Below are positions 8,896 to 26,942 of a DNA stretch of 64,000 bases, piece by piece. The position numbers were made by a program, and so were the translations under genes. Positions within the stretch are counted from its first letter, which is position 1. Every line of letters begins with the position of its first letter. The notes under the pieces are model-generated. The model made no database searches and was not told where the DNA came from. It worked only from the letters and a program-made list of their open reading frames with translations. This DNA is from Alitta virens (taxonomy: Eukaryota > Annelida > Polychaeta > Phyllodocida > Nereididae), in NCBI GenBank assembly GCA_932294295.1, contig OW028574.1:13836215-13900214 (forward strand), read 5' to 3'.

Positions 8896-9423
8896 CATGC
8901 CTTATTAATTTGAGTGATGATCAGACAATTTAAGGTGCTTCTGTTTTGAGTTGATTCATTTCATTGTTATGCTCACTGAAGCGGAGATATGTATGTCCTC
9001 CCTGGAATTCATGCAGTACATACAACATGTCAAGTGGTACAATCGACATTAGTGGACTGGGATTAGTTCATTGGTTCATCGCACCTTGAAATGTTATATC
9101 TTTGCAATGGCGCACTGTAAAATTGTATTGGAATAAATTGTAAATAAGTTATTCTTCAATCTACTCCTGTTGTTTCTTCTGGTCAATTGCAATTAAACGT
9201 AACAAAACTTTAGCCTTTGTATGTTCTTCTGGTCAATTGCAACTGAGCTAGAGTGACCCCCTTTCCAGGGCAATTTAACCCTCACACCTAATTAATTGCA
9301 ATTTATTAAAATTACATGAAAGATAACACAAAGCATTTACCAGCTTAGAGCTGCTGAGAGGGGTGGGCTTGTCTTGAACAACCAACAAAACAGATAAAGA
9401 CCGCACTCGCCGACCAGCCAGTC

Positions 9424-9429
9424 GCCGAC
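9424..9429. repeat. Polinton target-site duplication, left copy
   Basis: GCCGAC directly before the left TIR; identical to 29049-29054 after the right TIR. A second GCCGACCAG occurs 15 bp further out at 9409, matching the right flank over 9 bp, so the target may have been locally repeated. Confidence 0.9.
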
Positions 9430-9583
9430 ACTACAGACAGGCCGATATGATATCACGATAAGCTAGTTATTTGCCCTCAGGGGCCTGATATCATATCGAG
9501 CTGTGGCCATGGATCCCTACCCCTCCAAATTCGCCCCCGGGCTACGCTCATCATTATGCTAATTAGTACACAACTTGTCTTTG
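9430..9583 (+). repeat. Polinton left terminal inverted repeat with internal hairpin
   Basis: Matches the right end in inverted orientation. The outer 54 bp are identical; then comes a 1-bp indel and another 23 bp of identity, after which similarity is patchy to about 9583. Inside the conserved part, 9443-9455 (CGATATGATATCA) is perfectly inverted at 9486-9498, giving a 13-bp stem. Protein-primed polymerases initiate at such ends, so the hairpin may be part of the replication origin or the integrase/terminal-protein binding site (inference). Confidence 0.92.
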
Positions 9584-10998
9584 TAGGCGCACACCCCGGG
9601 GCTATCCATTTAGCTAGTATGAATAAATTAGATTAATTTGATTGATCAATACATTTTGTTCAGTTAAAACAGTTTGTTAATATTAGTACTATGTCGCAAT
9701 GGGTATTTCAACAACTAAAGTTCTAATTTCGGTGACACTTTTTTTTTTTTTAAATGAGATATTAAACCCCTGTGTATTAATAAATCTTGAATTCTATATT
9801 AACTATTTAAAATGAACTCCATTTCCTCTGAAGTATGTGACTGATCATTGAACTCTGGTATTTGACTGAAAATGTATTTATTTACTATTTTTTTGTACAT
9901 CTATAATGTAAATTTTATAATGCTCTTTTAGATAGCATTTGAACTATAACTATGTCATGAAACTAGCCAGTTTAGATCATAGTTTCAAAATTATGAGCTA
10001 CAAATTACACTGTTACAAATTACAATACTTAAGAATAAAAGTCAGTGTATATGCATTAATTCAGTCAGTCAGAAATGAAAGCACAATCTCTCAGTACTCC
10101 CCACTGTGATTGGCATTATACTGTTAAGAGTATTTAGGTGTCACTTTGTGCCTGCTGTTTCCATAAGTGACACTAGAGCAAGCCCCTTACACCCCTAGGC
10201 CTGTCACAGTCATACTCAATTTGCTACCCCAATGTAAATGGAACCCCCAAATTAGAAGGCTGCATTGAGAATGTTAACAGATAAGGGACTTCAAGCTGTG
10301 AGCAATATGGCAAGCAGTCATCAGCATCAGTCAACAAGCCTGCCTCTTAAATGGCACGCTTGACTATTGTATACACCCTCGGGGCTAATTCACGCCAAGT
10401 ACACCCCCTTTTTTTGTTTGCCGTTTTTACCCTAAATGTACTGATAAGGGTTGTTAATGACAAACACAGCTTGTGTATTATCTTTCTTTTTGATCTGTAA
10501 ATTCCCAACTTCTCTGTATACAAATTATTGTTTTAAAAATGAAGAAAAAAAGAAAAAAAGTCAGTGTTAAAAAATTCCTGTTTATGTAAAAATGTAAGTT
10601 TTAAAAAAGTCACCGTAGACATAAGCATAACATGCCTCACAAGAGTCAACAGCACAGCTGGAGACAAACTGAACAACGAAAAATGACATTAGAAAATAAA
10701 TCAGTAAAAAATTGCAATAAAAAAAAAAAAAAAAGTCCAGACTGTACAGTGCATCAATCAGCAAGTCGCTTCCATTGATGGACTGTACATACTGATCAGT
10801 GGCACATGTAAAAAAGAGTCAATAATAATAATAAAGAAAGAGAGTAAGAAAAAAAAAAAAGCAATACATGGCTATGACAGCAATATATACATATACACAT
10901 ATATACACAATGGGGCACTACTTCATACATATCAAAGTGCATAAAAACAAAATTTTAAAAAAATCGCAAAAATTACCAAAAAAAAAAAAAAAAAGACA
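9584..10998. other. Polinton left subterminal non-coding region
   Basis: 1.4 kb of AT-rich DNA without a credible gene. It has A/T homopolymers (9740, 10720, 10850, 10977-10994). A 60-aa Phe-rich minus frame at 10582-10764 looks like a poly-T artefact. Confidence 0.5.
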
Positions 10999-11370
10999 TC
11001 ACATTCGAGGCTGAGCGCCTCTGACATATCTCAACCGGTGATGAATAACATTGCCTTGATCAAGCCATCTGCTACTCCTCACCCGTTTAAATTTGTCAGG
11101 GGCACCCCGATCCTCCTCATTATCGTCATTAGCTTGAAGATACGGGTCGTCCACCACCGCATCTTCTTCCTCCTCCTCCTCCTCCTCCTCCTCCTCCTCC
11201 TCCTCCTCCTCCTCCTCCTCCTCCTCCTCAACAAGTTGTCTATCTTCTATTCTGCGCATCAAGTCGTCATCCCGAAAAACCAGCCATACCGCTAACAAAA
11301 ACCTCATCAGCCTTGACAGGACTCTGAAAATGCGTAAGGCTCCATCTCTCCTCTGAAAAAATAAGTGCAC
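10999..11370 (-). CDS. Acidic poly-Glu protein, unknown function
   Basis: 123 codons from ATG 11370 to stop at 10999. The N-terminus is basic and hydrophobic (RIFRVLSRLMRFLLAVWLVF), which could be a membrane or amphipathic helix. Then follows an uninterrupted run of about 22 Glu encoded by a TCC-type triplet repeat, then a polar Arg-rich tail. It is the left-most gene of the element on the same strand as its neighbours. I do not recognise the family. The triplet tract could alternatively be a chance microsatellite frame, but flanking residues remain open on both sides of it. Confidence 0.45.
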   Translation of the reverse strand: MHLFFQRRDGALRIFRVLSRLMRFLLAVWLVFRDDDLMRRIEDRQLVEEEEEEEEEEEEEEEEEEEEEEDAVVDDPYLQANDDNEEDRGAPDKFKRVRSSRWLDQGNVIHHRLRYVRGAQPRM

Positions 11371-11521
11371 ATTGACTATGACGTGTTTTTTTCAATTTTG
11401 ACCATTCTTACTCCGTGCTGTCAATAACTGCACCAAACACAAACTTCATTACTGTATTACGGTATTACAACTATAGTATTTTGCAGCAGTATTTAAGCAT
11501 TTCCGAAAAAAAAAAACCCAC

Positions 11522-12229
11522 CTAAGCAGTGAACGCAGTTGAAGGAGGGGTGTCTCCTCTTTCCAGCGTATGTAGATTGCCCCAAGTACAATTACAGCAT
11601 TTTGCAGCCAGATGAGCAGGGAGGAGCATTATTGCCATACATTTCAAACAGCAATCAATCGCGCACATTGCTGGATCGTCGGCCCTGGCGTGGCTATTGA
11701 TGCGAGCATGTAAGTTCACGAGACTCACCAGAATGCAGCATGTCACAACTCCTCCCAAAATGCTGCTCACTGTCGTCCACACGATCATCCCAGTGCCATA
11801 ACCCCTTAAAGCCTTTCTGGATGCAAAGAGAGGTGCATGGGGTTCATGTGAATGGTCGTAATCGATCTCGACTGTGGTCTTTATCAATGAAGTCACCGTC
11901 ACTCCAGCTACATCGGCTGCCAAACACTGAGTCCAGGGAAAGGTTGAAGTAATTTCCGGGCAGAGTTCACCAGAAAGTCCAATAACTATAACTCTAGCGA
12001 ATCCTATTGTGCGCTTGAGACTCGCCACGTCAAAGTTCTCCATTCCTGGCCTAAGCGTCAGTACTTTGCCGGTCCGGTGTTCAGAAGCAAAGAATGGTGC
12101 AGCGGCCACCTCTTTACAAAGTACGGCCCCCGAAAAGCCGCAACTGCATTGTCCCTCATTTCCGCAGGACCATGCCACCGCATGACTCAAGCTAATCACT
12201 AGCAGCAAAAAGACAGCAATTCGATCCAT
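11522..12229 (-). CDS. Secreted/type I membrane protein of the Polinton
   Basis: 235 aa when started at ATG 12229, chosen because it gives a clean signal peptide (hydrophobic FLLLVISLSHAVAW); the frame is open 31 codons further upstream. After the signal comes a Cys-containing ectodomain (CGNEGQCSCGFSGAVLC) with LRR-cap-like spacing. A long hydrophobic segment near residues 145-175 (VWTTVSSILGGVVTCCILVS) acts as the membrane anchor, followed by a Cys-rich stretch (CAIDCCLKCMAIM, then CCNCTWG) and a short polar tail. Polintons often carry such a membrane protein; a role in particle envelope or host contact is only an inference. The Cys cluster after the membrane segment suggests palmitoylation or metal binding. 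Confidence 0.7.
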   Translation of the reverse strand: MDRIAVFLLLVISLSHAVAWSCGNEGQCSCGFSGAVLCKEVAAAPFFASEHRTGKVLTLRPGMENFDVASLKRTIGFARVIVIGLSGELCPEITSTFPWTQCLAADVAGVTVTSLIKTTVEIDYDHSHEPHAPLFASRKALRGYGTGMIVWTTVSSILGGVVTCCILVSLVNLHARINSHARADDPAMCAIDCCLKCMAIMLLPAHLAAKCCNCTWGNLHTLERGDTPPSTAFTA

Positions 12230-12900
12230 GGCACTCAATAAATGATCCGCTTGCAATTTCCACTTGCTTTCTCTCCCAACAAAAAGCCTGTAATGACCAC
12301 TTAACACCCCTATCCAGGTCAAGAATCACCCTCAGTCTGACCTCAATACGGTGTGTTACATAATGAAAACAAAAGAAGGCTAGGGGGGTGGCCACAGCAT
12401 GCCAAATGGAAGGGTATATTAGACACAATGGGCTGAGTTATATTCACTCTTATTGCACACACATGTCATTATTCATCACATATATTAATTAGTTCTGATT
12501 GTAATGCCACTAATTTTGATAGGAAGTCTCTCCAAATTTCACTCAGGTCACTGTCACTATATTATAAGACACTCATGAGTAAAAAAATAAATAAAAATTA
12601 ATAAATAAATTATAAACTTATATTTATATATAATAAAATTAAAAAAAATTAAATAAAATTATTTGTACCCGCTTGAGATGCTACAGGTATTAAATGAGCA
12701 TTCTTAAAACGTTTATTTGATCATGAGATAAGCGTGTCATGGGGCCACCCACTGGGGATGCTCAGATGACACTTGAGCAGAAAAGACTTATGGCCTGAAG
12801 CTGTGTGATGCGCATGTCACCTGCATGATCTGAGGGGGAGATGACCATGGGGGCTGAGTTCTGGAGACCCCCCATAGCAGACAGTTCTCCCCTCCAGCTA
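12230..12900. other. Intergenic region upstream of the membrane-protein gene
   Basis: Separates the minus-strand membrane-protein gene from the plus-strand promoter at 12910. It includes A/T-rich DNA (12580-12665, AATAAAT-type repeats) and a palindrome-poor stretch. No clear TATA box for the minus-strand gene is visible. Confidence 0.4.
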
Positions 12901-12909
12901 ATTATTTAG

Positions 12910-12917
12910 TATAAAAA
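12910..12917 (+). promoter_or_regulatory. TATA box of a plus-strand promoter
   Basis: TATAAAAA on the plus strand, followed about 35 bp later by an initiator-like CCATTC (A at 12945) and, 80 bp further, by a consensus 5' splice site. The only plus-strand gene it can serve inside the element is the polymerase. Confidence 0.6.
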
Positions 12918-12944
12918 GTACAAGGCTCAATGGCTGAGGACACC

Positions 12945-13025
12945 ATTCACAACCAGGACTAGTGGGCATTAGGACATCACCAGCAGCCAAAACGACACCA
13001 TCAGCAACACTCTGCTTTAAAACAG
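12945..13025 (+). other. Predicted 5' leader exon of the polymerase transcript
   Basis: The stretch from the probable start (about 12945) to the donor AAAACAG|GTAAGT at 13025/13026 has no long reading frame and is CA-rich, unlike surrounding AT-rich DNA. It would splice to the acceptor at 19754, placing the first downstream ATG at 19771. Predicted from sequence only. Confidence 0.5.
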
Positions 13026-13109
13026 GTAAGTCGCCTTTTTTTCCTCTTGTTTTAATGTACATTCATTCCCCCTAACAGTCAGTCATGGAAACTCGTAACT
13101 CTTCAATGT

Positions 13110-13399
13110 GTTTTTTTTTTTTTTTTTTTTTTTGTACTTCATTTTATTTACCATATGTTTTTAATAGACTACAATACATATATAAATAGACATTTATCTA
13201 GATTCCGGTGTCGTTATTAAATGACATATTATATATATATATATAAAAAAATATTTTTGGAATTATAATATACTATACATCATTAAAAAAAAAAAACTAC
13301 TTTTAACAGCCGCTATTGACGGACATGCAGTACCATACAGTAAATACCTATATTCTCCCTCAGCTAATAATAATAATAATAATAATTACCAATGACATA

Positions 13400-13452
<53 letters not shown>

Positions 13453-13630
13453 TGCACAATACAACGCAATACAATACAGTGCAATACAGTGTAATGCAAT
13501 ACAGCGCAATACAATACAGAAAAAAAGACTATACCAAGTGGCTGAAACAATATTTTTTTATACGCAAATAATGCTTTATCTCGATTCTATTACTGACTTT
13601 GAATGAAAATTTATTTTAATTTTTACTATG
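13110..13630. repeat. Simple repeats between promoter and protease
   Basis: Poly-T (13110-13133), TA repeats (13232-13246, 13398-13416), (AAT)n at 13366-13386 and 13417-13452, then imperfect GCAATACA repeats (13453-13520). No gene. Confidence 0.8.
13610..13615 (-). terminator. AATAAA poly(A) signal for the capsid-gene block
   Basis: AATAAA on the minus strand, 18 nt after the protease stop codon. It is the only obvious signal after this block, because the eight genes overlap or abut and leave no room for internal ones. Confidence 0.65.
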
Positions 13631-13632
13631 CA

Positions 13633-14121
13633 TCAAATCAATTTACCCTGGCTATACAGCATTAAGCAGTGACTTTTAACATCTGTTATTTCCTTAAACA
13701 TTTTTAAAATACATGAGGGTTCATATTGCCTGCTTCTATAGTAAGCATAGGCCAGTGCATAGAAACCGCAGTGAGTAGAAGCTAAATACCCCGAACAAGT
13801 AATGTGACTTTTAAATGTTGACATAAAAGCAGTTATTTCTTCATTGTAGGTACGCTCGCCCAGTGAATCGAATACTTCTAAAAGACTCGAATCTTCGCTC
13901 TTCAACTTCCGCTTCTCCCTCGAATTACCATGAATGGTCAGGATCATCCAGTGGCCCACCTCGCCGCGTAAGTACGAGTTTTCATTACAATTAACGATGT
14001 AACAGCGCTCACGGCCGTCGGCTTTAACATAGCTCAGCGCTCTCGAGGGTATGATTGCCATGACGTACGAAGAGGCTGTCTTGTCATTCCAAAGTATCTC
14101 ATATAGCTCGTTTGTGTTCAT
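13633..14121 (-). CDS. Adenain-like cysteine protease (Polinton PRO)
   Basis: 162 aa. It belongs to the C5/ULP1-like cysteine proteases that mature capsid proteins in adenoviruses and Polintons. Visible catalytic set in family order: His57 in GHWMIL, acidic Asp85 in EVFDSLG, nucleophile Cys118 in STHCGFYALAY. The Gln that usually forms the oxyanion hole several residues before the Cys is not evident (the stretch there is SHITCSGYLA), so that part may differ. It is shorter than adenain (about 200 aa). Its start codon overlaps the capsid stop as ATGA (14118-14121). Last gene of the minus-strand block. Confidence 0.88.
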   Translation of the reverse strand: MNTNELYEILWNDKTASSYVMAIIPSRALSYVKADGRERCYIVNCNENSYLRGEVGHWMILTIHGNSREKRKLKSEDSSLLEVFDSLGERTYNEEITAFMSTFKSHITCSGYLASTHCGFYALAYAYYRSRQYEPSCILKMFKEITDVKSHCLMLYSQGKLI

Positions 14122-15497
14122 GTCAAATAGAGGTTACGTGCGTAATCGATTGAGAATAGACCTGGATATGTCACTTTTGTGAGCATAACAGCTGACTCTT
14201 CCAGTGGTGATCTGAATCTCAACTCTATTCTCACACAGCCCTCGCGAGTCACGGGGTAGAATTCCGAGTGATTTTGGGGAGCAAGGTCAATCACGAACAA
14301 GGTGTACCCCTCTTTGTATTCCTCACGAGTTATTCGCCCCTGATTGGAGCAATTCTGTTTCCCCTTGTAGAGGTCCGAGTAACAATGTAGATACTTATCC
14401 GCTGTAAAGTCAACACTCAGAGGCCCCCCTGGTGTAGGGGTGCCAGACAGACTCACGTTAATGAAATTGATGTCGTAGTGTCGAAAGTTGTAGGGGTTCT
14501 TGGCTAGGCTGCCACTCATTGATTCCCCAGACACCAGGCCTATGACAATTTTACTCGGCACTCGTCCATTGAATGCGTCCTCAATGTAATATGAGGATGT
14601 ATCGCGTGACAGATTGAATTTTCTGAGCTCTTCTTTGGTGTAGAAGTATTTGGCCAGTGAAATCTCTTTCACCAGGACATCTTGATGGCCCAGTAGAATG
14701 AGACTAGTGGGGGTCACGTGTTTCAGAATTAAAGTAATATCCACAATTTCCAGCTTGTAATCAGTTTTACTGGCGTTGGGGCTCAGCAGCCTGAACCTAT
14801 TGGAAGTTGGCGTGAGAGTGATGTCAATAGTGACACCATTTAGTAGGTATTTGTTGACTTTGAATACATCAACATCCACTTTGGCCAGAAGCTCAACAGT
14901 GCGGCTCCCACTCATCGCCTCGGCTCTCTTTTTAAACCCCTCGTTGCAACCAATCAGGAGACTGACGTCGTCCATGAAGCCAGCAGAGTCCTTATGAAAC
15001 ATTGCGCATTCTAGTTCAGAGTCATTAAGTTCAGTTTCACCTAATAGAGTGTTCATTAGGGCCTTGTAGCTGTAGCCTGTTTGACCACCTGTCACAACAC
15101 GATCGTTGAGGCGTACTTCCACTTGATCCCATAGGCCCTGAGCCAGGTTATTAACAGGTCCAACACTCCATACCCCCTCGTCTGCAGAAACACTCTCCGC
15201 CCCTGCAGTTGCAGCATCAGCATCTGGCTCAGTTCCTCGCTCTGGCACTAGCGAACCGTCACCCCTGACAATTCGCACTCTGGTAGCTAGGTATACATTC
15301 GATAGGTCAATGTAAGAAGTACCTACGCCTGGTACATGGAACTTTGCTTCACTCTCGGTTGAAAACTGGTTGACCGGCTTGTGCGAGAGATATTTCACAT
15401 CGGTGACGCCCAAGTTACTGGCTGGAACGCTGAACAAGTTAAGAGTATCCTCATAGGCCAGGTCTGACGCCTCTAGAACTTTTTCACCGCTTGACAT
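14118..15497 (-). CDS. Hexon-like major capsid protein (double jelly-roll)
   Basis: 459 aa. The start resembles the conserved Polinton capsid family represented by the C. elegans F54H12.2-type protein: LFSVPASNLGV, then FHVPGVGTSYIDLSNVYL, then WDQVEVRLNDRVV, and later ITLTPTSNRFRLL. These match the first jelly-roll strands seen across Polinton capsids. It would form the capsomer of an icosahedral shell, with the neighbouring penton, protease and ATPase completing a morphogenesis module. It overlaps the upstream basic-protein gene by 14 nt and the protease gene by 4 nt. The frame is intact throughout. Somewhat shorter than many Polinton capsids. Confidence 0.85.
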   Translation of the reverse strand: MSSGEKVLEASDLAYEDTLNLFSVPASNLGVTDVKYLSHKPVNQFSTESEAKFHVPGVGTSYIDLSNVYLATRVRIVRGDGSLVPERGTEPDADAATAGAESVSADEGVWSVGPVNNLAQGLWDQVEVRLNDRVVTGGQTGYSYKALMNTLLGETELNDSELECAMFHKDSAGFMDDVSLLIGCNEGFKKRAEAMSGSRTVELLAKVDVDVFKVNKYLLNGVTIDITLTPTSNRFRLLSPNASKTDYKLEIVDITLILKHVTPTSLILLGHQDVLVKEISLAKYFYTKEELRKFNLSRDTSSYYIEDAFNGRVPSKIVIGLVSGESMSGSLAKNPYNFRHYDINFINVSLSGTPTPGGPLSVDFTADKYLHCYSDLYKGKQNCSNQGRITREEYKEGYTLFVIDLAPQNHSEFYPVTREGCVRIELRFRSPLEESAVMLTKVTYPGLFSIDYARNLYLT

Positions 15498-15927
15498 GAC
15501 GAGTGAATATGTCGTTTATCCTCGCTATTTTCTTACTAGGTGCACCACTCGCTCCAACTGTCTTGCGCTTGATACGTTGCGTCCCTGACTTACGCTGTGG
15601 TGTGACTGAGCCCTTGAGTTTAGAGAGTGGGTTTTTATCAATTTTCCCCGCCAGTTCTGCATGAGCCATTTCGTTGGACTGCTCAATAGGCGACACTACC
15701 GTTAGCGGTAAATTTTGACCATTCTGTTCGCCTCTGCTCTGACTCGATCCGACCTCGCTCCGACCCTCACCCCTAGCCGCCTTACCAGGCTTAATGACAA
15801 CCGCCATAGGTTTTTTTGACCATAAACTCGTCTGCCCTGCAGTCTTCTGAAAATGCTCTATCCACGGTTCGGCTTTCATGGCCGCTAGTGATTTATATCT
15901 CTCCGCCATAACAGTTCCAAAGTGCAC
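15484..15927 (-). CDS. Small basic protein, probable DNA-associated core or minor virion protein
   Basis: 147 aa from ATG 15927. An internal Met at codon 7 (15909, MAERYKSL) is an equally good start and would reduce the overlap with the penton gene to 25 nt. The N-terminus has an aromatic phrase (EPWIEHFQKTAG). The rest is rich in Lys/Arg, Ser and Gly, ending in a strongly basic tail (RIKRKTVGA, KKIARIND, RHVKR). Placed between capsid genes, it could be a nucleic-acid-binding core protein comparable to basic adenovirus core proteins; that is inference from charge and position only. Confidence 0.7.
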   Translation of the reverse strand: MHFGTVMAERYKSLAAMKAEPWIEHFQKTAGQTSLWSKKPMAVVIKPGKAARGEGRSEVGSSQSRGEQNGQNLPLTVVSPIEQSNEMAHAELAGKIDKNPLSKLKGSVTPQRKSGTQRIKRKTVGASGAPSKKIARINDIFTRHVKR

Positions 15928-16346
15928 CTCGTGGCCTGAACTGTCTCACTACTAAGTTCCTGTAAAATGTCTCCTCTCGAATCCCTGAGCTCGAACGACA
16001 GGTGCTCCACGTCCGCCACTCTCACTGGCACATAGAGTACTGGCTGTAGGTGTGCATAGTTATGCCTTTTTATTTCCCCCAGAGGAATTGAGCGTAACAC
16101 TGGACTGTAAGTGTCACCCACTATGGAGCCTTCCAACTGAGCGCACGTCACATACATTACATCCCATTTGGACCACTTGCCACTTAGTGAGGGTACTGTT
16201 ATGTCAATAAGCCCCAAGTACCACTGTCCTTTCAGTAATGTATTTTTTGGTTTGGGGAATGACTCAGGCATTTGCACAGTGAAACTCCCCGCACTGTTTC
16301 TCGGGTTGATCCCCAGAGTCTGGTCGCTAGCGGCGTAAATAAACAT
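15885..16346 (-). CDS. Penton-like minor capsid protein (single jelly-roll)
   Basis: 153 aa. It has the pattern of the Polinton minor capsid (PY) family: an N-terminal SFTVQMPESF and WYLGLIDITVP, and a C-terminal YVPVRVADVEHLSFELRDSR followed by a final beta strand CTLELLWRR. It is predicted to form the vertex capsomers of the particle. It lies 16 nt after the integrase stop and overlaps the next gene by 25-43 nt depending on that gene's start. Intact. Assigned by motif pattern and position beside the major capsid gene. Confidence 0.8.
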   Translation of the reverse strand: MFIYAASDQTLGINPRNSAGSFTVQMPESFPKPKNTLLKGQWYLGLIDITVPSLSGKWSKWDVMYVTCAQLEGSIVGDTYSPVLRSIPLGEIKRHNYAHLQPVLYVPVRVADVEHLSFELRDSRGDILQELSSETVQATRCTLELLWRRDINH

Positions 16347-16362
16347 GACTGCTGCCTCCTTC

Positions 16363-17682
16363 CTAGTTTTTCTTCTTCTTCTGCTTTTTCTTCTTCAGAG
16401 TCTTAAGGCCTGCGGTAGGTAGCCACTGGTTATATTTACTCGGCCACGATTGATATTTAACAAGACTCTCACTTTCACCGTCAGCCCTCACTCTTGTTCT
16501 GATCACCTTTTCAATGCGGAAGAAAGCATCGGGGTCAAACCTTACTGCAGTCAGCTCGTTCGAATAGAATGGACCATCAACAGTCTCACCCCCGTAATCA
16601 TTCAGGTAGTAGACGGCAACGTTGTCCGAAAATTTTCTTGCCCTCACCGAGAACACTTCACCGGTAAACTGCTCGTCATATGAGCGAGAAAATATTTTTT
16701 TCCTATGATAAGACACCCTGACTTTGTCACCGATGGCGAATTTGTAAACACTTCGTTTCTTGTTCCTCGATGAAGAAATGGCCCTCCGGAAAGCAGACGC
16801 TAGGTCTATTGTGTTTTGAGTCACGTACTGATAGTCCCAAATGTCCTGCTCGTTCGACTTAGCCACTTGTGATGGACTGACTCCTATGCTCGAATGAACA
16901 GTACGGTTATACGAAGATACTATATTCTGAAACTCATCAGCGTAGCTGTAACTGTTGCTGTATTGGAAAAATTGGAACAATCTTTTCTTCAACCCCTTGA
17001 TCATGGCCTCTGCGTAGTTGGCCTTCGTTTCAGTGTTTGTAAAAATCATCTTTATATTCCGCTCCCCCATAAGTGCAGTGACAAGGGTGTTGGTAAATTC
17101 GGTGCCTCTGTCGCTCCTTATAAATCGAGGCAGTTTCTTCGATTCGTCATCCTCATCTCCATCACTCTCTCTCTCACCGGCTGGATCGCCTGCAGCAGCC
17201 GGAGCAGCCGCAGCAGCCGCAGCAGTCGCTGCAGCATTAGTGGGGCCATCAAATATTTTCCTGAACCCTTCGCACACATGTTTCCCGCTTTTGCTCTTGA
17301 CAGGTTGCGCTCTACAGAACCTCGAAAAGACATCTATTGTGACAAGGATGTAAGCAAGGCCGTCATTAGCTCGTGCAAATCTCTCTCCATTCAGAACTAG
17401 TAAATCGCAGTCCCACAGGTGATTGATGCCTGGTGCAATGACTCTTCTATATCTGACAGGTTTTTGTCTCCCCTCCTTGTGTAGCGTGACAATGTCCTGA
17501 GATTTGGCCCAATCATTAATTCGACTCAGACTAATGTTGTAGCGTCCTTCTCTCTTAATTACGGAGTGCAGCTTTGATGCACTTGTGAAACTAGCTGGCG
17601 ATCGAGGATTGTAAAAACGTCTGGATAAATATGCATCTATATCTTTAGGCAGGACCATTATACAGCCTTGACCCTTATCCAA
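16363..17682 (-). CDS. Retrovirus-like integrase with C-terminal chromodomain (Polinton INT)
   Basis: 439 aa. The N-terminal region (residues 1-85) is of Polinton type (SRRFYNP...). The RNase-H core has the D,D,E triad: Asp93 in LWDCDLL, Asp191 in RSDRGTEF, Glu225 in NYAEAMIKGLK. A further conserved segment is SSYNRTVHSSIG. A chromodomain-like segment lies at about 387-422 (RIEKVIRTR, then KYQSWPSKYNQWLP), followed by a Lys-rich tail. It inserts the element with 6-bp duplications. Oddity: an Ala-rich then acidic low-complexity insert (about 147-184), made of GCA/GCC-type triplets, sits between the first and second catalytic Asp. The gene overlaps the next upstream gene by 25 nt. Confidence 0.94.
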   Translation of the reverse strand: MDKGQGCIMVLPKDIDAYLSRRFYNPRSPASFTSASKLHSVIKREGRYNISLSRINDWAKSQDIVTLHKEGRQKPVRYRRVIAPGINHLWDCDLLVLNGERFARANDGLAYILVTIDVFSRFCRAQPVKSKSGKHVCEGFRKIFDGPTNAAATAAAAAAAPAAAGDPAGERESDGDEDDESKKLPRFIRSDRGTEFTNTLVTALMGERNIKMIFTNTETKANYAEAMIKGLKKRLFQFFQYSNSYSYADEFQNIVSSYNRTVHSSIGVSPSQVAKSNEQDIWDYQYVTQNTIDLASAFRRAISSSRNKKRSVYKFAIGDKVRVSYHRKKIFSRSYDEQFTGEVFSVRARKFSDNVAVYYLNDYGGETVDGPFYSNELTAVRFDPDAFFRIEKVIRTRVRADGESESLVKYQSWPSKYNQWLPTAGLKTLKKKKQKKKKN

Positions 17683-18644
17683 TTAAGTTTATTATTATTA
17701 TTATTATTCTTCTTCTTCTTCTTCTTCTTATTCACCTCCTCATCAGTAGCTTCTATTTTCTTTTTCCTCCTATTCACCGCTCCAGAGCCCGAGCCCGAGC
17801 CAGAGCCAGAGCCAGAGGCAGAGACAGAGCCAGAGCCAGAGCCAGAACCGGAGGAAGAACTCTTTTTACCGGTTTCCCTGTTACCAAATTCTTGACTAAG
17901 CTCTTCTTCTTCTTCTTCCTCTTCCTCTTCTTCCTCCTCTTCTTCTTCTTCTTCTTCTTCTTCTTCCCCCCTGGAGTATTTGTTCTTCATGTAGTGCAAT
18001 ATACGCCTCAATTTGACGTTAGAGACTAGGCTAAGAGGAACATCTCTCTCTAACATGAGCCAGTAAAACTTGTGATGTCCAGTGGGCACAGGGAACTCGC
18101 TAGATTGAGTGTGAAGTAGGAACGCAGAGTAATCTATAGTGTGAGCCCCTGAGCCAGCAGAGTTGCGGGGAATGAGTGCCCTCAATATTTGACGCGCTTT
18201 ATCTCGGTGAGAAGTAGAAGTCAGACGAGTATCAATGTCAATATCAATATCAATATTTCTCAAAGCGGCGTCGCTGCTCACACTTCTCGCACCTCTCCTA
18301 GACTGATTGCTAGACGCGTCGCTGGGGAATTTGTCAGAGTCTTCATCCAGCGGAGTCGGAGATGCCATCGACACCGACCCATTTAGCGATGTATTTCCAT
18401 TGCTGACAGGCCCCCCACCGCTTTCAATGAGCCCTCTCCCCCGACTCTGCGACAGGCTAGAAGTCGGCTCACCGTTCAGATCCCGCAGGGAGGGCAACTG
18501 GCCCGCTCCGCTGCCTATGGCAGCGGCAGGGGCCATTTGCCCTGGCTCATCTTGCGACTTCTTTCTATTGGCCTCCATAAGACTTTCGTATTTTTCATGA
18601 GGTATCACGTAGACCTTCTTGTTAAATTTCATTGTCAGAGTCAT
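17658..18644 (-). CDS. Polinton protein of unknown function with poly-Glu and Ser-Gly tracts
   Basis: 328 aa. The N-terminus, KKVYVIPHEKYESLMEANRK, resembles a short conserved phrase found in a Polinton protein usually adjacent to the integrase. A middle region (about 155-225, ARQILRALIPRN... then LVSNVKLRRILHYM) looks folded and helical. The C-terminal third is almost all low complexity: about 23 Glu, (GS)n, then Lys and Asn runs, all encoded by triplet repeats. It overlaps its neighbours by 25 and 23 nt. Function not assigned. Confidence 0.75.
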   Translation of the reverse strand: MTLTMKFNKKVYVIPHEKYESLMEANRKKSQDEPGQMAPAAAIGSGAGQLPSLRDLNGEPTSSLSQSRGRGLIESGGGPVSNGNTSLNGSVSMASPTPLDEDSDKFPSDASSNQSRRGARSVSSDAALRNIDIDIDIDTRLTSTSHRDKARQILRALIPRNSAGSGAHTIDYSAFLLHTQSSEFPVPTGHHKFYWLMLERDVPLSLVSNVKLRRILHYMKNKYSRGEEEEEEEEEEEEEEEEEEEEEELSQEFGNRETGKKSSSSGSGSGSGSVSASGSGSGSGSGSGAVNRRKKKIEATDEEVNKKKKKKKNNNNNNKLNWIRVKAV

Positions 18645-19026
18645 CTAGGGTAGACAGTAATTTCTTCAAGTGGGGTAGACAGTGCTCTAAAAACTCCACC
18701 AGAGTCTTGTAGTGCGTCACGTAAACCTGCTTCAACTGACGCCGTGACGCAACGCTGATTTTAATGGACGAAGTTAAGCGGTCATCAGTTCCTCGAACAA
18801 TTCTAGTAACCTTTCTGAGAACACGCTTGCCCCTGCTTAACTGTCGTAGCACACTGCTGGGTACTTCGACGTTCCCTTCCAAAGTGTTCAGGACGACTTC
18901 TGTTATGCAAAGCACCTGCTCACGGGTCGCATCTGCCAATAGGGTGCGACTGAGTCGAGCTGTCATCCTGTAAGTGGTTGTTAAAAGTTCTAAGAACTTC
19001 ATGCAACTAATCGCTCTCTCAGCCAT
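18622..19026 (-). CDS. Small helical Polinton protein, unknown function
   Basis: 134 aa, predicted mostly helical and basic (LLTTTYRMTARLSRTLL, LRQLSRGKRVLRKVTRIVR). Its ATG overlaps the ATPase stop in the string TAATG (19024-19028), so the two may be translated together by termination-reinitiation. Genes of this size and pattern sit next to the ATPase in other Polintons as far as I recall, but no function is known to me. Confidence 0.75.
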   Translation of the reverse strand: MAERAISCMKFLELLTTTYRMTARLSRTLLADATREQVLCITEVVLNTLEGNVEVPSSVLRQLSRGKRVLRKVTRIVRGTDDRLTSSIKISVASRRQLKQVYVTHYKTLVEFLEHCLPHLKKLLSTLDDSDNEI

Positions 19027-19694
19027 TATTTACGAGTGTATAGCACGAGAGTGTCCGAGGGTAGAATTGAGGTACTCAGTCGCACGTCGTCGTCCCCTGA
19101 ACTGGTCAAGTTATTCACTACTAAGTATCCACGTGGTTGGCGAGTTGCGTCCTCGTAAGCTTCGACTAGCCTCTTCGGAGTGTCGGGGAACATCTGACGT
19201 GAGAGGAAGTGTATCTGCTGTAAGTCACGGCATGTTTTTAGCAATATCAAATAACTAGTGTTAAGACTGATGGTGCGCGAGTATCGCGACTGGTGGTAGA
19301 CGTTTTGAGATATCATGATGACTGAAATGCGACTGTGATGCACGTCTCTCGTGAAGAGAGAGCACATTTCGCTAGATTTACATATTTCATCCATGAGGTC
19401 ATCGAGTACGAGTAGGCTGTGGCCTGTGTCATTGTCACTTTTCAATTCCTCAATCATCTCACGAGTAGGCAGTCCGTGATGGACGTTTAGATTTGTCACT
19501 TCAGCCTCCAAGTCATCAAACTTTTTCTGATGTACACCGTACGCGTAAAGTATTCTTTCAGGGGGTATGGTGTACATGGCTTCCGCATTCCTCAAAATGG
19601 CTAGAGTCAGGACAGTCTTACCAGACATTGATGGCCCCGCTATAACCGTAGAGGCGGGTGACTCGAACTTGAATACACCCATAGACTTCTCCAT
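19026..19694 (-). CDS. FtsK/HerA-type genome-packaging ATPase
   Basis: 222 aa, a usual length for the Polinton packaging ATPase. Walker A is GPSMSGKT (residues 20-27), with Lys26 binding phosphate. Walker B is LLVLDD (94-99), with the catalytic acidic residue there. A sensor-like ISQN follows at 128-131. It is the first gene of the minus-strand block and starts only 76 bp from the polymerase ATG on the other strand. It is expected to drive DNA into the capsid at a vertex. No TATA box fits between the two starts, so its promoter may be TATA-less or lie inside polB. Confidence 0.92.
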   Translation of the reverse strand: MEKSMGVFKFESPASTVIAGPSMSGKTVLTLAILRNAEAMYTIPPERILYAYGVHQKKFDDLEAEVTNLNVHHGLPTREMIEELKSDNDTGHSLLVLDDLMDEICKSSEMCSLFTRDVHHSRISVIMISQNVYHQSRYSRTISLNTSYLILLKTCRDLQQIHFLSRQMFPDTPKRLVEAYEDATRQPRGYLVVNNLTSSGDDDVRLSTSILPSDTLVLYTRK

Positions 19695-19740
19695 GATTTT
19701 TTTTTCTGCTGTTTTTTAAACAAAATGTCTCTTTTTTTGT

Positions 19741-19754
19741 TTTCTTTCTAACAG
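19741..19754 (+). promoter_or_regulatory. 3' splice site before the first polB coding exon
   Basis: The pyrimidine-rich run TTTTTTTGTTTTCTTTC leads into TAACAG ending at 19754. It has all the properties of a genuine acceptor, including a CTAAC branch-like element. It implies that the polymerase mRNA has an upstream leader exon. Confidence 0.65.
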
Positions 19755-19770
19755 TCTTGCGGACCAGGTT

Positions 19771-22700
19771 ATGGAGGACCTGAATGAAATGGCCCGAAGA
19801 GTCAGTGCAGCTCAGCCGAGAGTCGAGGAGAAAATGGATATCGATATGACGGAGGTGGAAGACTCTCCTCAAACTCGGCCTCAACCTCAGTCACAGCCTC
19901 AGCCACAGCCTCGGTCTCAGGCACAGCCTCAGCCTCAGACACAACCTCAGCCCAGACCTCAACATCAGTCTCCGTCCGAGTCGGAGTCTCGACTCAAGGC
20001 CATAGCACCTCGCACAAGGGCTCAGACTCGTGCTCAGAATGTGACTCGGGTCAAGACTAAGGTCAATGTTCAACGCCCTGCCCATGTTTTATTAGAAGCG
20101 ACGCCGTCAACTGCACGAAAGTCGTCTCTAAGTCTTACTAGCAGCCAGAGACAGAGGCAGAGGCAGAGGCAGCTGCAGAGTCAGCTTTCTGTCGAGTCAT
20201 GCACAACAGCCAGCTGTGACGGTGATAGCACTATTACGGGTGCAGTGGCGAGTACAAGTGCGAGTACAAGTGCAAGTGTGGCTGCAAGTACAGTCACCAG
20301 TAAAGTGGGCACTGACAGCATGACAACTACTGCTACAACTACTATCACTACTGCTACTACTAGTGCTGCTACTACTGACACTACTACTACTACTACTACT
20401 ACTACTAAGGACAATTGCTCAGCCTCTGTACAGGCTGTAAATGGGTGTGATTACGAAACTGACGATGAGCCAGATACCGGCACTGACGCAGACACCGAGG
20501 ACGACAGTTGCACTGACAGCGATAGTGGCGCTGACGATGACGACGACGTCGACGACGACAGCGATATCGAGGACTCCGGGGTGCCTGGTGAGTCAGCAGA
20601 AGAAGGAGTGGGAGGAGGGAATGCCGACATTCGCACCAACTCACGTGTACCACCGATGAGACGGTGCGATCACACCCACTCGAGGGTCTCTGTGCCTCAA
20701 GCAGTGGATACCTCCACTTCAACATTACCACTGGCTGGAATAAACACCTCTAGTGGTGATAATGATGTTAAACAGTACGATGCGTGCACTGAGGAGTGGG
20801 ACATTGTTGATGATGACGATGCTCTTCAGCTGCTGGAGAGCGAAATACTGCAGAGACCTCTGGCTGCCCAACAGCAGACACCTTCCACTGAACCAGGTGC
20901 TGTGTATGTCCAGGATGAGGAGTGGGACACTGCTGATGATGACGATGCTCTTCGCTCAACCGAGAGTGAAATACTCAAGGTATGTACGCGATCAGCACCC
21001 AGTGCTTGCGAATTATTAATTAATTAATTAATTAACATTGACACTATAGGAATGGTATGGTTTGACAATATTTTTTCTTTTTTTTTTTCAGCGTTTGAAG
21101 AAGGAGCTACAGTATCACCAGAAAAGGACCCGTGAGATTGAGGCCTTTTTCACGTGTTTCAACTCAGCCCCTAATGAAGCCCCTCCCCCCAAGAAACTAA
21201 AATTAACCAATGAGTAAGTTTTTAATTATTATTATTAAAAAAAACAAAAAAAAAACAAAAGCATTCTATTTACAATGTACACCCGTGCTTAACAGTGTTT
21301 TTTTATTTATTCTTTCTCCTCCAGACCTCAGCCTTCGACCAGCTCGGCCTCTAGCCTGATGAGTGGGGAGTGCGATTATGATCCATGTGAGGGGACTTCA
21401 TCTACTGACCATTCCATTTTGAGGTGTGTGTGTGCGTGTGTGCGTGCGTGCGTGCGTGTGTGTGTGTGTGTGTGTGTGGATGAATTTAGGATGCATGTTT
21501 AGCAATGTCTCCATGAATTGAGGATAATGACATAAGGTTTCATTACTCTGTAGAGAGAGCCATGGCGTGCAGCGGAACAGTGGAGATGGTGGTTCAGTGG
21601 TGAAGAAGAAGAAGAAGAAGAAGAAGAATGATGACAGCCATGAGGGGGAGAATGCCAGCAGTGGACCGGTTGATGTAGCAAACAAGTCGTCATTAGTTTA
21701 GTATGTTTGTGCCCCAGTGCTATTGCATACCATTATACGCGAAGTCTCTGTACAGCTTCTTTTTTTTAAAATAAAAAATAAATGAAATTAAATCATATTT
21801 TTTATTTTTTTATTATTTTTTATTTCAGCTTGAAAGAAATTTTGACACGCGACTGTGAGGTTGATGTTGAGGAGTTAGAGCTTGAGGAGCTGCATGATGG
21901 CAATGAGATGAAACTACTTATGGACATTTTATATGATAACAACATAGTGGGTGAGGGAGGAGATAGAGAGGGTGGAGGAGGAGGAGGAGGAGGAGGAGGA
22001 GGAGAAAATGTACCTATTGTTAATGATGCTGTTGATGATGATGATGATGGTGGTAGTGATGGCGATTTTGAAGACAACATGATTTTTGATGGTCCTGATT
22101 ACTCGGTGAACTTCCATAGACACATTGATGTAAAAAATATACGTGATCTAGAGTTTGATGGGGGTGCAGCCAGAGAGACCGTATACAGGGTGCACCTTGA
22201 TGCAAACTGGTCAGGGGTCAATCTACGCGACATAATGGGAGGCCTAGAAGGAGTGATTGAAGACATCCTGGAGCGCCTCAGAGAGAGTTACAACCCCTTC
22301 GACCTTGTACGGTTTTTCATTCAGAATGAAGCTTTCTATAGCCCCCACACTCTAGGCCTTATGCCTTTACATCAGATTAACATTTTTAGAATTCTTGAAC
22401 TACTGGAAACATTGTTACAGTCGGATGATGAGCTATATCTAGATGAGGCCCTTGAAATTCATGTAGGTGTTATACGTAACCCTCTGGGTGCTGGGCGTGG
22501 AGACGGACTCAATTATGTCGATGATCTGCACAAGTTCAGGTGTATTTGTAAAATAGGAAATGATGACAAATTGTGCCTTGCACGGTCAATTGTTGTGGGT
22601 CTCGCTAGAGCTGATCTAGATGCAATTCCCTCATCAAACCGAGCTGCACAATTGGCAGCCCGATCAGCTTATTACCAGGTGATTAACCCTAAGCGTAAGC

Positions 22701-25700
22701 TGCAAAAGGCGAAGGCAGAGCAGCTGCACGCACGTGTAGGGTTCAATGTCGGCGACGTGCCAACCTTCACCGACATTCCTGCTTTTGAGAGGGAAGCCAA
22801 TGTGCGCATTGTAGTGTTCAGCAGAGGCTCTGGAACAAGGGCCATTTATGCCGGTGCAGCTCATCGTCAGCGCACAATTTATTTACTTTATGTGAGTGAC
22901 CCTCTGAAACCCAGGGCTGTAGGACATTTCCACACAATAACACGTGTGCACTGTATTTTTGGAAAGAGCGCTTTTTGCTCAAAGTGCCTTCAGCCGTACG
23001 ACAAACGCTATGGCCACAAAGGCTGTGAACAGTGTGTGTCGTGTCGTAGTTCTCCATGTGTTGCCGTGGAAGATGAAAAGCATAACTGCCCGAAATGTAA
23101 CAGATTCATCAAGTCGGAGGAGTGTGCACGCATGCACATGGAAAACGGTGTCTGTTCAAGCGCTCACAAGTGTAAAGACTGCGGAGCTTTCTATGCACCA
23201 TCGAAAGAGCACAGGTGTGGCATGAGGGAGTGCACAATCTGTAAGAAGTGGGTGTCAGGTGTTCATTTCTGCTACATACGGCAACGCAAACCCAGGGGAG
23301 TCTCCTGTAAATATATGTTTGCAGATTTTGAAACTGACCCCACTACAGAGTACCACACCCCCAATCTTCTCATCGCCCACTGGGAGTGTGAACACTGCAT
23401 TGAGCACACATACCGCGAGAATAAGCACTGTAGCCACTGCGGTACTGCATGTGAGAAATGCTCAAAGCTCACCTCTAGCGCTACGGCTAGGGGACACCCT
23501 GAAAGAGCTCTCTGCATGTCCAGTGATGCATGCGGAATGAGATCGGCCCGCTTTTTTGGTGATGCCACAGCCACTGAATTTTGTGAATTTTTTTTTGCTA
23601 AGGAATTCGAAGGTTACACGCTCATCTTTCACAATGGCCAGGCGTATGATGCATACTTCATAGCAAAGTACATCTTCTGCACCATGTGTAAACTACCCAA
23701 AGTGATATACAGGGGGAGCAAGATAGTTGCGATTGACACAGGTAAGTTCAGAGTGATTGACTCCCTGAACTTTCTCACGTTCCCCCTGAGTCAGATGCCC
23801 AAAGTGTTCGGGTTGAAGGGTGTGAAGAAGGGTACTTTCCCAGTTTTTTTCAACCAGAAAGAAAACTGGGACTATGTCGGGCCAATGCCACACCCCTATT
23901 GCTACAGAGTGAATGCCATGAAGCCCCAGGCTCGGACTGAGTTCATGAAATGGTATGTCTCTCAGAGGGGGAAGGTGTTTCATTTCAAAAACGAATTACT
24001 GGCCTATTGTGAGGATGATGTGAATATCCTGCAGGAAAGTTGTAATGCTTTCAGGAGCTGGCTTCTGGGTATTACTTCGAGGGAAGAAGTCGTTGATGTC
24101 TGCGAGGGTGGTGAAAGGGTTACAAAGACCATAGGCATTGACCCCCTGCAGTACAACACTCTGGCTAGTGTCTGCATGGCAACCTACAGATACATGTTTC
24201 TAACTGAAACATATTCAGTTACTCTAGCCGATGGTAGAGTGGTTAAGGGGCTCCTGCAAAATGACAACATGAAACTTGTAGGGGAAGGGGGAGAAATAAT
24301 CGAAAGGGACAGCGCTCAAGTGAGCTCCATGCAGTTTGAGTCAACCCCCTTTGCCCGAATGCCTTCATGCGGGTTCGCTGGAATAGACGCGCACAGTAGA
24401 TCGTCCATTGTTTGGCTGGAATATGAGTCGCGGAGACGAGGCGTACCTATTCAGCACGCCCGTAGTGGTGGAGAGCACCGGGTGCGAAACCAGAGCGGTG
24501 ACGGGTGGCTGAAGCTAGATGGCTATCACCTTGATGTGACCACTGGCAAGGAGACTGCATGGGAATTTTACGGTTGTGTTTTTCATGGCTGTAAGTGGTG
24601 CTTTGGTGGTGAGAAGGTTTCGACTAACATCCGACACCCTCACACTGGTGAAAGTCTCAAGACGCTCTACATACGCACTATGGACAGGTTAGCCTATCTC
24701 AGGCTGGTACTCAATTTCGAGGTTCACACTGTGTGGGAGTGCGAGTATCGACTGATGCTGAAAAGTAACCAGATGCTCCACGAAATAGAAAGCGCCTGTG
24801 AACTTTTACCTCGACTGGACCCCCGTTCCTCTTTCTATGGTGGTCGGGTAAATGCTGTCAAACTATACCATGAAGCCAAGGAAGGGAGGAAAATAGGGTA
24901 CACAGATATCTGTTCATTGTACCCTATGGTGTTAAAAAATGACGTTTTCCCTGTGGGTATTCCTGAGGTCATTGTGGAACCACAGGGCACAGACATCAGT
25001 GCATTTTTCGGCATCATTCAGGCTCGGGTGAGACCACCTCGTGGACTGTATCACCCGTGCCTCCCCGTTAGGTTAAATGGTAAGCTGTTTTTCCCCCTCT
25101 GCCTCACATGTGCTACTACCCAGTCAAAAGAAGCATGCAATTGCTCAGACGAGAAGAGAGACCTGACCGGTACATGGACCACTATTGACCTTCAGGACGC
25201 CCTCAGTGTCGGCTACACAATCATAAAGCTGTTTGAAATTTATCATTTCAAAGAAAGGGCAACATTTGACAAGACTCAGGAGACTCCTGGTCTGTTTTCG
25301 GACTATGTCAATATGTTTTTGAAGGGCAAGCAGGAGGCGTCAGGGTGGCCTTCGGCTGACATGTCTGACTCCGAAAAGAGCGATTACATCGCTCAGTATA
25401 AGGCAGTGGAAGGTATTTGCCTGGACCCTGGTAGTATTTCACTAAATCAGGGGAAAAGGGCAACAAACAAGCTACTCCTTAACAGCTTCTGGGGGAAATT
25501 CGGCGAGAACAATAACCATCGTACTCACCAACTAGTCGAGCAGGGCATTGACATTTTTAAATTGCTCACAAACCCCGCTATTTCTCTGAAGGGCATGCAT
25601 ATTCTTGATGAGAAACGTTGCATGTTAGAGTACTCGCACTCGGAGGGTTTCCTACCAGAAATGGGACACGTGAATGTATTCATTGCAGCGTTCACGACCG

Positions 25701-26215
25701 CCAATGCACGTAGTAGATTGTTCAATGTACTCAATAAACTGGGTAGGAGGGTACTGTATTTTGACACCGATTCGGTTATTTACGAGTATGATGACACGGA
25801 ATTAGATGAGTACACTCCTGACATGGGAGACCATTTGGGGCAGTGGACAAATGAATTGAAGAAGGGTCAGCACATCTCGCGGTTTGTTAGCAGTGGCCCT
25901 AAGTCATATGCGTTTATTACAAATGACGATGAGGAGCGAACAACAAAGCTCAAGGGTTTCACACTGAATCACGAGGTGTCGAAACTCTTAAACTTCGATA
26001 GCATTTGTAGACTAGTGCTTTTCTGGGCTGACCCTGACAACAACCCTCTGCCCCCTGATGAGCAGCCCCATGTGGAAGTAGCCTATAGCAAGATCAGGCG
26101 TGATAAGTACAAGTTTAAGTTGTTTAGCAAGGAAGAACTTAAAAAATTCCGTGTTACATACTCCAAGCGACGACTCCTACCCGGTACATATGACACTGAA
26201 CCTTACGGTTTTTAG
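19771..26215 (+). CDS. polB: Protein-primed family B DNA polymerase, five coding exons
   Basis: Exons: 19771-20979, 21092-21213, 21325-21423, 21554-21700, 21829-26215. All four introns are GT-AG and phases agree; the total is 5,964 nt (1,987 aa). Exon 1 is low complexity (Pro-Gln, Ser/Thr, acidic). Exons 2 and 4 hold Lys-rich nuclear-localisation-like stretches. Exon 5 has, in order: a Glu/Asp/Gly-rich start; an OTU-like segment (DDKLCLARSIVVG near 22560; GHFHTIT near 22922); CxxC zinc motifs (22978-23275); exonuclease motifs DFETD (23324), FHNGQAYDAYF (23626) and YCEDDVNIL (24005); a Vsr-like segment (24400-24765); and palm motifs DICSLYP (24904), LLLNSFWGKFG (25472) and YFDTDSVIYE (25759). 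It replicates the element from its ends by protein priming. All catalytic residues are present. Confidence 0.92.
20791..20979 (+). repeat. 42-residue tandem duplication in polB exon 1
   Basis: EEWDIVDDDDALQLLESEIL (residues 341-360) recurs 42 residues later as EEWDTADDDDALRSTESEIL, directly before the first splice donor. The DNA repeat (GAGGAGTGGGACA...) is equally visible. An acidic repeat suggests an activation or interaction motif (inference). Confidence 0.85.
21424..21553 (+). repeat. GT/GC microsatellite beginning at a polB splice donor
   Basis: Intron 3 starts directly with (GT)n(GCGT)n repeats (21424-21478), so the donor itself is part of the microsatellite. This gives several alternative GT positions; only 21424 keeps the frame with the acceptor at 21553. 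Confidence 0.7.
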
Positions 26216-26261
26216 TTGAGTAGAGTAGAGTAGAGTTGAGTAAAGTAGAGCAGTGTTGGAG
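26216..26261 (+). repeat. GAGTA tandem repeat after the polB stop
   Basis: TGAGTAGAGTAGAGTAGAG-type repeats begin directly after the TAG at 26213-26215. Confidence 0.85.
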
Positions 26262-26281
26262 GGGTTTGAATTTATATTGCA

Positions 26282-26287
26282 ATTAAA
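26282..26287 (+). terminator. Possible poly(A) signal ATTAAA for polB
   Basis: The variant signal ATTAAA lies 67 nt past the stop; no canonical AATAAA lies nearer on this strand. Confidence 0.4.
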
Positions 26288-26352
26288 TGTTTTTTTTAAA
26301 TTATTATTATACATTGTCATATTGTTTGTTGTAAATTGAATATAATACCATT

Positions 26353-26353
<1 letters not shown>

Positions 26354-26406
<53 letters not shown>
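26354..26406 (+). repeat. (AGT)n microsatellite
   Basis: About 17 perfect GTA units in the gap between the converging polB and 362-aa genes. Confidence 0.95.
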
Positions 26407-26429
26407 TACATTTGTTACCAGCCGCTCAC

Positions 26430-26695
26430 CGTTTGACGTGTGATATATGATGTATGATGTGTGAAATATGTGTTTGATGCACGATGCACGAAACCGTGAA
26501 ATATGTAAGAAATTGATGATGCGTGAACTGAAATTTGTTTATGACTACACTTAACATTTCACACCACTCCATAGTTTGGTGTATGCTGTGTGAAACTGTG
26601 AAATATGTATGAAATTGTTTGATGTATGATGTGTGAAACTGCGAAATATGCAAGAAGTTGTTTGATGTATGATGTGTGAAACTGTGAAATTACAC
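26430..26695. repeat. Degenerate 40-50 bp tandem repeats
   Basis: Repeats built on TTGATGTATGATGTGTGAAAC and TGTGAAATATG recur five or six times between the convergent genes. No reading frame. They may be a spacer or part of the 3' region. Confidence 0.75.
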
Positions 26696-26942
26696 TTAAC
26701 AGCCTTGAGGCATATTCAATTAAAAAAGATAGACTGCCAAGTCTTTTTTTAACTTAAATCTGCTGACTTTTTCTCATTTAGTGAATTTCACAAAGCTTTC
26801 TTGGCAACTAATGCAATATTCATTTAAATAGAGTAGCATAATTTATTACGTATGTCAGCCTTTTCATGAACATGAAAGTCACAGGCCACCCTAATGAAAA
26901 GAAAGAAACGAGTGAAAATGAAGTGTTCACTTTTGAAAATTT

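What the first reader, a model, noticed from the sequence alone, without database searches (positions are those of the whole stretch)
12910..19770. polB mRNA probably starts 6.7 kb upstream and splices across the whole opposite-strand capsid block
A strong 3' splice site (pyrimidine tract plus TAACAG, 19754) sits 16 nt before the polymerase ATG, though the DNA just upstream is minus-strand ATPase coding sequence. The only clean plus-strand promoter and donor pair I found upstream is the TATA box at 12910 with CAG|GTAAGT at 13025. If joined, eight structural genes lie nested and antisense inside one intron. Early (replication) and late (capsid) transcripts would overlap head to head, offering a built-in switch by transcriptional interference or double-stranded RNA. 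Adenovirus E2B polymerase also uses a distant leader exon (established knowledge).
Basis: partly seen in the sequence, partly recalled or inferred. Interest (0 to 1): 0.82.

Follow-up and report, generated by a model that had tools for sequence, protein, structure and literature searches.

The report
Possible distant leader for Polinton polymerase
A virus-like transposon in an unnamed animal genome carries signals suggesting that the message for its DNA polymerase starts about 6.8 kb upstream and has a whole block of opposite-strand genes spliced out of it, much as in adenovirus, but no RNA data or related DNA could be obtained to prove it.

Summary
TATA 12910 plus donor 13025 is the only strict-TATA plus donor>=11 pair on either strand of the ~19.6-kb Polinton-like element. 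A pair that good arises in 3 of 2000 shuffles of the local gap and in 1.8% of 1000 Markov sequences of the 10.3 kb upstream. The acceptor, 16 nt before the polB ATG, scores 11.6, but 641 of 5000 local shuffles reach 11.5. polB is the only gene found on the plus strand and has four short in-frame introns (111-130 nt), so splicing is in use; intact vertebrate Mavericks are reported intronless (PMC8097293).

The long join is inferred. Against it: a 6,729-nt intron, two stronger acceptors (16399, 16083) and one AATAAA inside it, no canonical branch point, and a weaker donor at 19657 that would give a normal-sized 97-nt intron. The eight opposite-strand ORFs include integrase and ATPase, so they are not all structural. 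No relative's DNA was found in eight scans; the genome search was unreachable nine times. Best reading: an adenovirus-E2B-like distal leader, probability 0.4; if real, a new variant of a known kind.

The parts
9418..29060 (.). Polinton/adintovirus-like element between terminal inverted repeats
   Evidence: TIR 66 nt at 94%, about 168 aligned columns at 86%; polB, rve integrase and A32-like ATPase
12910..12917 (+). TATA box (TATAAAAA)
   Evidence: sequence; one of few strict plus-strand TATA words upstream of polB outside AT-rich repeats
12941..13025 (+). Inferred 5' leader exon, no ATG, 48% GC; start inferred from the TATA position
13023..13031 (+). Strong donor CAG|GTAAGT
   Evidence: score 12.5
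13026..19754 (+). Proposed 6,729-nt intron (inferred, not shown)
   Evidence: inference from donor and acceptor; competing sites listed
19735..19755 (+). Acceptor, 16 nt before the polB ATG
   Evidence: score 11.6
19771..20979 (+). polB coding exon 1 (low-complexity, acidic)
   Evidence: open frame and donor 9.3
21092..21213 (+). polB coding exon 2
   Evidence: acceptor 17.1, donor 5.1, frame open
21325..21423 (+). polB coding exon 3
   Evidence: acceptor 13.5, donor 8.8, frame open
21554..21700 (+). polB coding exon 4 (weak sites)
   Evidence: acceptor 5.2, donor GTATGT below 3, frame open up to the donor
21829..26215 (+). polB coding exon 5, with the polymerase domain
   Evidence: acceptor 11.8; DNA_pol_B_2 1e-37
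13633..19694 (-). Block of eight ORFs antisense to the proposed intron: 13633-14121, 14118-15497, 15484-15927, 15885-16346, 16363-17682 (integrase), 17658-18644, 18622-19026, 19026-19694 (ATPase)
16399..16399 (+). Competing acceptor, first exon base, score 14.8 (antisense to the Lys-rich end of integrase); another at 16083, 12.9
17304..17418 (+). Possible small extra leader exon (acceptor 10.8, donor 8.3); TATA word at 17119 is a rival start
19657..19657 (+). Rival nearby donor CGG|GTGACT, last exon base, score 6.6 (97-nt intron)
13143..13148 (-). AATAAA for the minus-strand block; another at 13610-13615

Best explanation
polB is transcribed as a plus-strand unit from the TATA box at 12910, in the gap at the far end of the minus-strand block, through that block to the polB 3' end near 26.3 kb. 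The ~85-nt ATG-free leader is spliced from 13025 to 19755, directly or through a small extra exon such as 17304-17418, so that the first ATG of the mRNA is the polB ATG; four further short introns are then removed. The minus block (integrase, ATPase and probably capsid and protease genes) is thus antisense inside the first intron, as capsid genes are to adenovirus E2B. Shown: the motifs, the uniqueness of the TATA+donor pair, the in-phase short introns. Inferred: promoter activity, the 13025/19755 join, early/late timing.
For: TATA + donor pair unique in the element, 3/2000 local shuffles and 0.018 of Markov sequences; GC-richer island of 44-59% per 100 nt between stretches at 17%; leader without ATG; no other plus-strand gene found for this promoter; donor 13025 far stronger than the next in 12900-19760 (8.3); acceptor 11.6 in the range of the polB introns (5.2-17.1), while the best acceptor upstream of 11 minus-strand gene starts is 6.8; polB is otherwise spliced.
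Against: No RNA data and no relative's DNA. The intron would be 6,729 nt against 111-130 nt. Seven acceptors>=9 lie inside it, two stronger than 19755; one AATAAA and three ATTAAA lie inside. No yTnAy branch word 13-60 nt before 19755, though 21554 lacks one too. 641/5000 local shuffles reach the acceptor score. Antisense acceptors are as dense in the block (7 in 6.06 kb) as antisense to polB (4 in 4.39 kb), so no sign of their avoidance. The ATPase start facing polB has no strict TATA word within 2 kb upstream either, so genes here may do without one.
Confidence: 0.4

Rival explanations
1. Local short intron: polB starts from a TATA-less promoter inside the ATPase gene and a short 5' UTR intron, e.g. 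donor 19657 to acceptor 19755 (97 nt), is removed.
For: Intron size matches the other four (111-130 nt); donor 6.6 lies within the range of the polB donors (9.3, 5.1, 8.8, below 3).
Against: Weak donor; no strict TATA word on the plus strand between 17119 and 19770; leaves the 12910/13025 pair without a gene.
Confidence: 0.2
2. No leader: transcription starts within about 19.6-19.77 kb, a two-way promoter shared with the ATPase, and the T-rich acceptor is unused.
For: 641/5000 local shuffles give such an acceptor; no canonical branch word; the ATPase start itself has no strict TATA word within 2 kb upstream.
Against: An RNA starting before 19725 would carry an upstream ATG with an 8-codon frame before polB (read); only 76 bp separate the two ATGs.
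Confidence: 0.2
3. The 12910 promoter makes a separate RNA (antisense or non-coding), spliced locally (13025 to 13079, 53 nt) or to 16083/16399, and does not serve polB.
For: 13079 has acceptor 6.5 and a TTAAT branch word; 16399 and 16083 score above 19755.
Against: No convincing plus-strand gene between 13.1 and 19.7 kb; the longest plus ORF there is 168 aa (16894-17400), antisense to integrase.
Confidence: 0.1
4. Internal promoter: TATA word 17119 with donor 17418 (CAG|GTGATT, 8.3) joined to 19755, a 2.3-kb intron.
For: Strict TATA word and the second-best donor in 12900-19760.
Against: Such a pair arises in 84/500 shuffles of the block; the promoter would lie in integrase coding sequence.
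Confidence: 0.05
5. Spliced-leader trans-splicing at 19755.
For: An acceptor close to the ATG without a near donor is typical of trans-spliced genes in animals that have this (recalled).
Against: None of 11 minus-strand gene starts tested has an acceptor>=7 in the ~130 nt upstream; host unknown.
Confidence: 0.04

Closest known systems
Adenovirus E2 unit (E2B: polymerase and preterminal protein)
   Same: Polymerase on the strand opposite to late genes; common distant promoter upstream of E2A; polymerase reached by alternative splicing (PMC9499273 and PMC5507307, passages). Adenovirus's late tripartite leader also lacks AUGs (PMC7851563, passage).
   Different: In adenovirus the same promoter also serves DBP and pTP; here no second gene of the unit was found. 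Adenovirus splicing is measured, this is predicted. polB here also has four short introns in coding sequence.
Intact vertebrate Mavericks (PMC8097293)
   Same: TIRs, protein-primed-type PolB, rve integrase, ATPase.
   Different: Reported intronless, with polB and ATPase in one module; here polB has introns and faces away from the ATPase, which lies with the integrase.
Adintoviruses (PMC11071296, passages)
   Same: Integrase with C-terminal chromodomain; PolB with a conserved N-terminal region holding DxLC and GH motifs that could be the OTU-like domain (motif reading recalled).
   Different: Hexon similarity not tested; 'splic' and 'intron' occur once each in that text, and the passages shown say nothing of polB splicing.

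Membership tests
Polinton/Maverick | terminal inverted repeats | tested here: met
Polinton/Maverick | family B polymerase, rve integrase and A32-like ATPase together | tested here: met
   (rve 31.6 bits, just under its cut-off of 32.6)
Polinton/Maverick | capsid proteins and adenovirus-like protease | tested here: inconclusive
   no profile or PDB sequence hit; MCP model pLDDT 30; place, size and recalled motifs only
Polinton/Maverick | 6-bp target site duplication | tested here: inconclusive
   no clean duplication seen by eye at the ends; ends not fixed to the base
Intact vertebrate Maverick | intronless genes, polB and ATPase in one module | tested here: not met
   against PMC8097293
Adintovirus | chromodomain integrase and OTU-like PolB N-terminus | tested here: inconclusive
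   Chromo 23.2 bits, under its cut-off of 25.1; OTU only by motif
Adenovirus E2B-type distal-leader unit | polymerase mRNA made by splicing from a distant promoter | not testable with these tools
   no RNA data
Adenovirus E2B-type distal-leader unit | polymerase transcript antisense to late genes | tested here: inconclusive
   true of the geometry if the 12910 start is used
Spliced-leader trans-splicing | acceptor just upstream of the ATG of many genes | tested here: not met
   seen at polB only; 0 of 11 minus-strand starts

The most novel reading that the evidence does not exclude
Polintons of this group share with adenoviruses an old transcription plan: the polymerase pre-mRNA starts beyond the capsid-packaging-integration block, runs antisense through it and is made translatable by a non-coding leader spliced across the whole block, so that the replication and capsid units regulate each other by geometry.
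Probability: 0.15. Interest if true: 0.75.

Novelty: new variant of a known kind. Interest (0 to 1): 0.45.

Why it matters
How Polintons are transcribed is little described: the vertebrate survey has no word beginning 'splic' or 'transcri' in its main text and reports intact elements as intronless (PMC8097293), and my paper searches (listings of an open-licence library only) showed no listed title or abstract on spliced Polinton polB. A distal leader would give a testable early/late mechanism and a trait shared with adenoviruses, which belong to the same virus lineage.

Tried and rejected
Relatives' DNA: six viral-contig scans (ATPase, part of polB, alignments A2 and A4, P0133, P0122) and two genome-contig scans (A4, A2) gave no confirmed relative. 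Protein relatives exist in unnamed assemblies (ATPase 182 with E<=0.001 of 358 candidates; polB 613 of 5111; 120 listed each) but come without genomic context. Host naming through the LINE reverse transcriptase gave no close named hit (118 of 5599 candidates). The single-sequence MCP model was useless (pLDDT 30). The bacterial promoter scan does not apply here. A repeat origin of 12640-13110 was checked by blastn against the rest of the window: only short matches, best E 0.085. An Rfam scan of the window gave 0 matches.

Considered and set aside: that the strong plus-strand acceptors inside the block are real. They are probably by-products of purine-rich minus-strand coding (16399 is antisense to a Lys run), but they would still compete. 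The splice-site matrices are approximate vertebrate frequencies from recall and the host's preferences are unknown, so scores are relative. In the test of minus-strand starts, two are GTG/TTG starts as listed by the ORF listing (15927, 17682); their first ATGs lie 18 and 24 nt further in.

Full report
What is there. The finding lies in a Polinton/adintovirus-like element of about 19.6 kb (9418-29060) with terminal inverted repeats (66 nt at 94%; about 168 aligned columns at 86%). The window is 38.7% GC and looks animal: a MOV10 N-terminal domain ORF (2183-2746) and a reverse transcriptase ORF with endonuclease (52249-56034). Minus-strand ORFs lie at 10999-12322, 13633-19694 (eight) and 26964-28679; polB is the only plus-strand gene I found. 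Of the eight, integrase (rve, chromodomain) and the A32-like ATPase have profile matches (rve and Chromo slightly below their cut-offs). Protease, MCP and penton labels rest on place, size and recalled motifs: Pfam, PHROGs, PDB sequence search and a single-sequence model gave nothing usable. So 'eight structural genes' is too strong.

The motifs. TATAAAAA at 12910, CAG|GTAAGT at 13025, the acceptor ending at 19754 and the ATG at 19771 are as described. With a recalled vertebrate matrix 13025 scores 12.5 (best possible 12.6). The same 9-mer also occurs in polB coding sequence (23741), so it proves nothing alone. A strict TATA word with a donor>=11 at 40-250 nt occurs once in the element on both strands, and twice in the 44.4 kb of flanks. 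By chance: donor>=12.4 in 0.018 and donor>=11 in 0.091 of 1000 second-order Markov sequences for the 10.3 kb upstream of polB; 3/2000 and 25/2000 shuffles of the gap 12323-13632. The pair sits in a GC-richer island (44-59% per 100 nt, next to stretches at 17%), and the inferred leader has no ATG.

The acceptor. 19755 scores 11.6; the four polB acceptors score 17.1, 13.5, 5.2 and 11.8. None of the 11 minus-strand gene starts tested has an acceptor of 7 or more in the ~130 nt upstream (best 6.8, ATPase). But 641 of 5000 dinucleotide shuffles of the 76-bp gap reach 11.5, and no yTnAy word lies 13-60 nt upstream (also true of 16083, 16399 and 21554).

polB is a spliced gene. Stop lists and phases give five coding exons: 19771-20979, 21092-21213, 21325-21423, 21554-21700, 21829-26215. 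The third acceptor and the second and fourth donors are weak. One of ten aligned relatives (P0122, 69% identical over the polymerase region) has a predicted protein whose similarity begins at the same acceptor (21829), as expected for a shared intron; the other nine do not show it. The survey of intact vertebrate Mavericks reports no introns and puts polB with the ATPase in one module (PMC8097293; passages and part 1 of 8 seen).

The proposed join. Nothing here shows that 13025 is joined to 19755. For: it is by far the strongest donor in 12900-19760 (next 8.3 at 17418), part of a promoter-like site on a strand with no other gene, and the first ATG of the product would be that of polB. Against: 6,729 nt is over 50 times the other introns; seven acceptors>=9 lie inside it, two stronger (16083, 12.9; 16399, 14.8); one AATAAA (16338) and three ATTAAA lie inside. 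The antisense acceptor density of the block (7 in 6.06 kb) is like that antisense to polB (4 in 4.39 kb), so no avoidance is seen. Nearer choices are 19657 (6.6; 97 nt) and TATA 17119 with donor 17418 (such a pair in 84/500 shuffles). An exon 17304-17418 would make a two-part leader.

Mechanism. Most likely, in my view, is an adenovirus-E2B-like unit: distal TATA promoter, non-coding leader, splicing over the antisense block. In adenovirus one E2 promoter serves DBP and, by alternative splicing, pTP and polymerase (PMC9499273 and PMC5507307, passages); [quoted passage not shown] Efficient splicing is reported to prevent dsRNA between its strands (PMC8860579, passages). So if the geometry here is real, removal of the long intron would more likely avoid dsRNA than build a dsRNA switch. 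Timing and interference remain inference.

Limits. No relative's DNA was found, the home genome could not be reached (nine tries), and the tools hold no RNA data. I give the distal leader 0.4, a local start with or without a short intron 0.4 together, and the rest to a separate RNA, an internal promoter or trans-splicing.

Noticed in passing
20980-21828: polB has four short in-phase introns (111-130 nt) ahead of the polymerase domain, unlike intact vertebrate Mavericks reported as intronless.
   Followed up: partly
13111-13133: T run (A run on the minus strand) right after an AATAAA of the minus-strand block (13143-13148), at the place expected for its mRNA 3' end.
   Followed up: no
28108, 28052: The minus-strand gene 26964-28052 has a TATATAAG box about 56 nt before its ATG, so other genes of the element use TATA-type starts.
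   Followed up: partly
10999-12322: Two minus-strand ORFs, the first with an apparent signal peptide, may be one spliced gene (donors 11522 and 11729); not tested further.
   Followed up: no
one search hits P0168, one search hit P0084, one search hit P0306: Polinton-type polB/ATPase and a LINE-type RT appear in bins named as clam-symbiont bacteria (Thiodiazotropha, Sedimenticola), probably host DNA in those bins.
   Followed up: no
33067-36888: Large inverted repeat in the right flank (arms 349 nt, 99%), outside the element.
   Followed up: no
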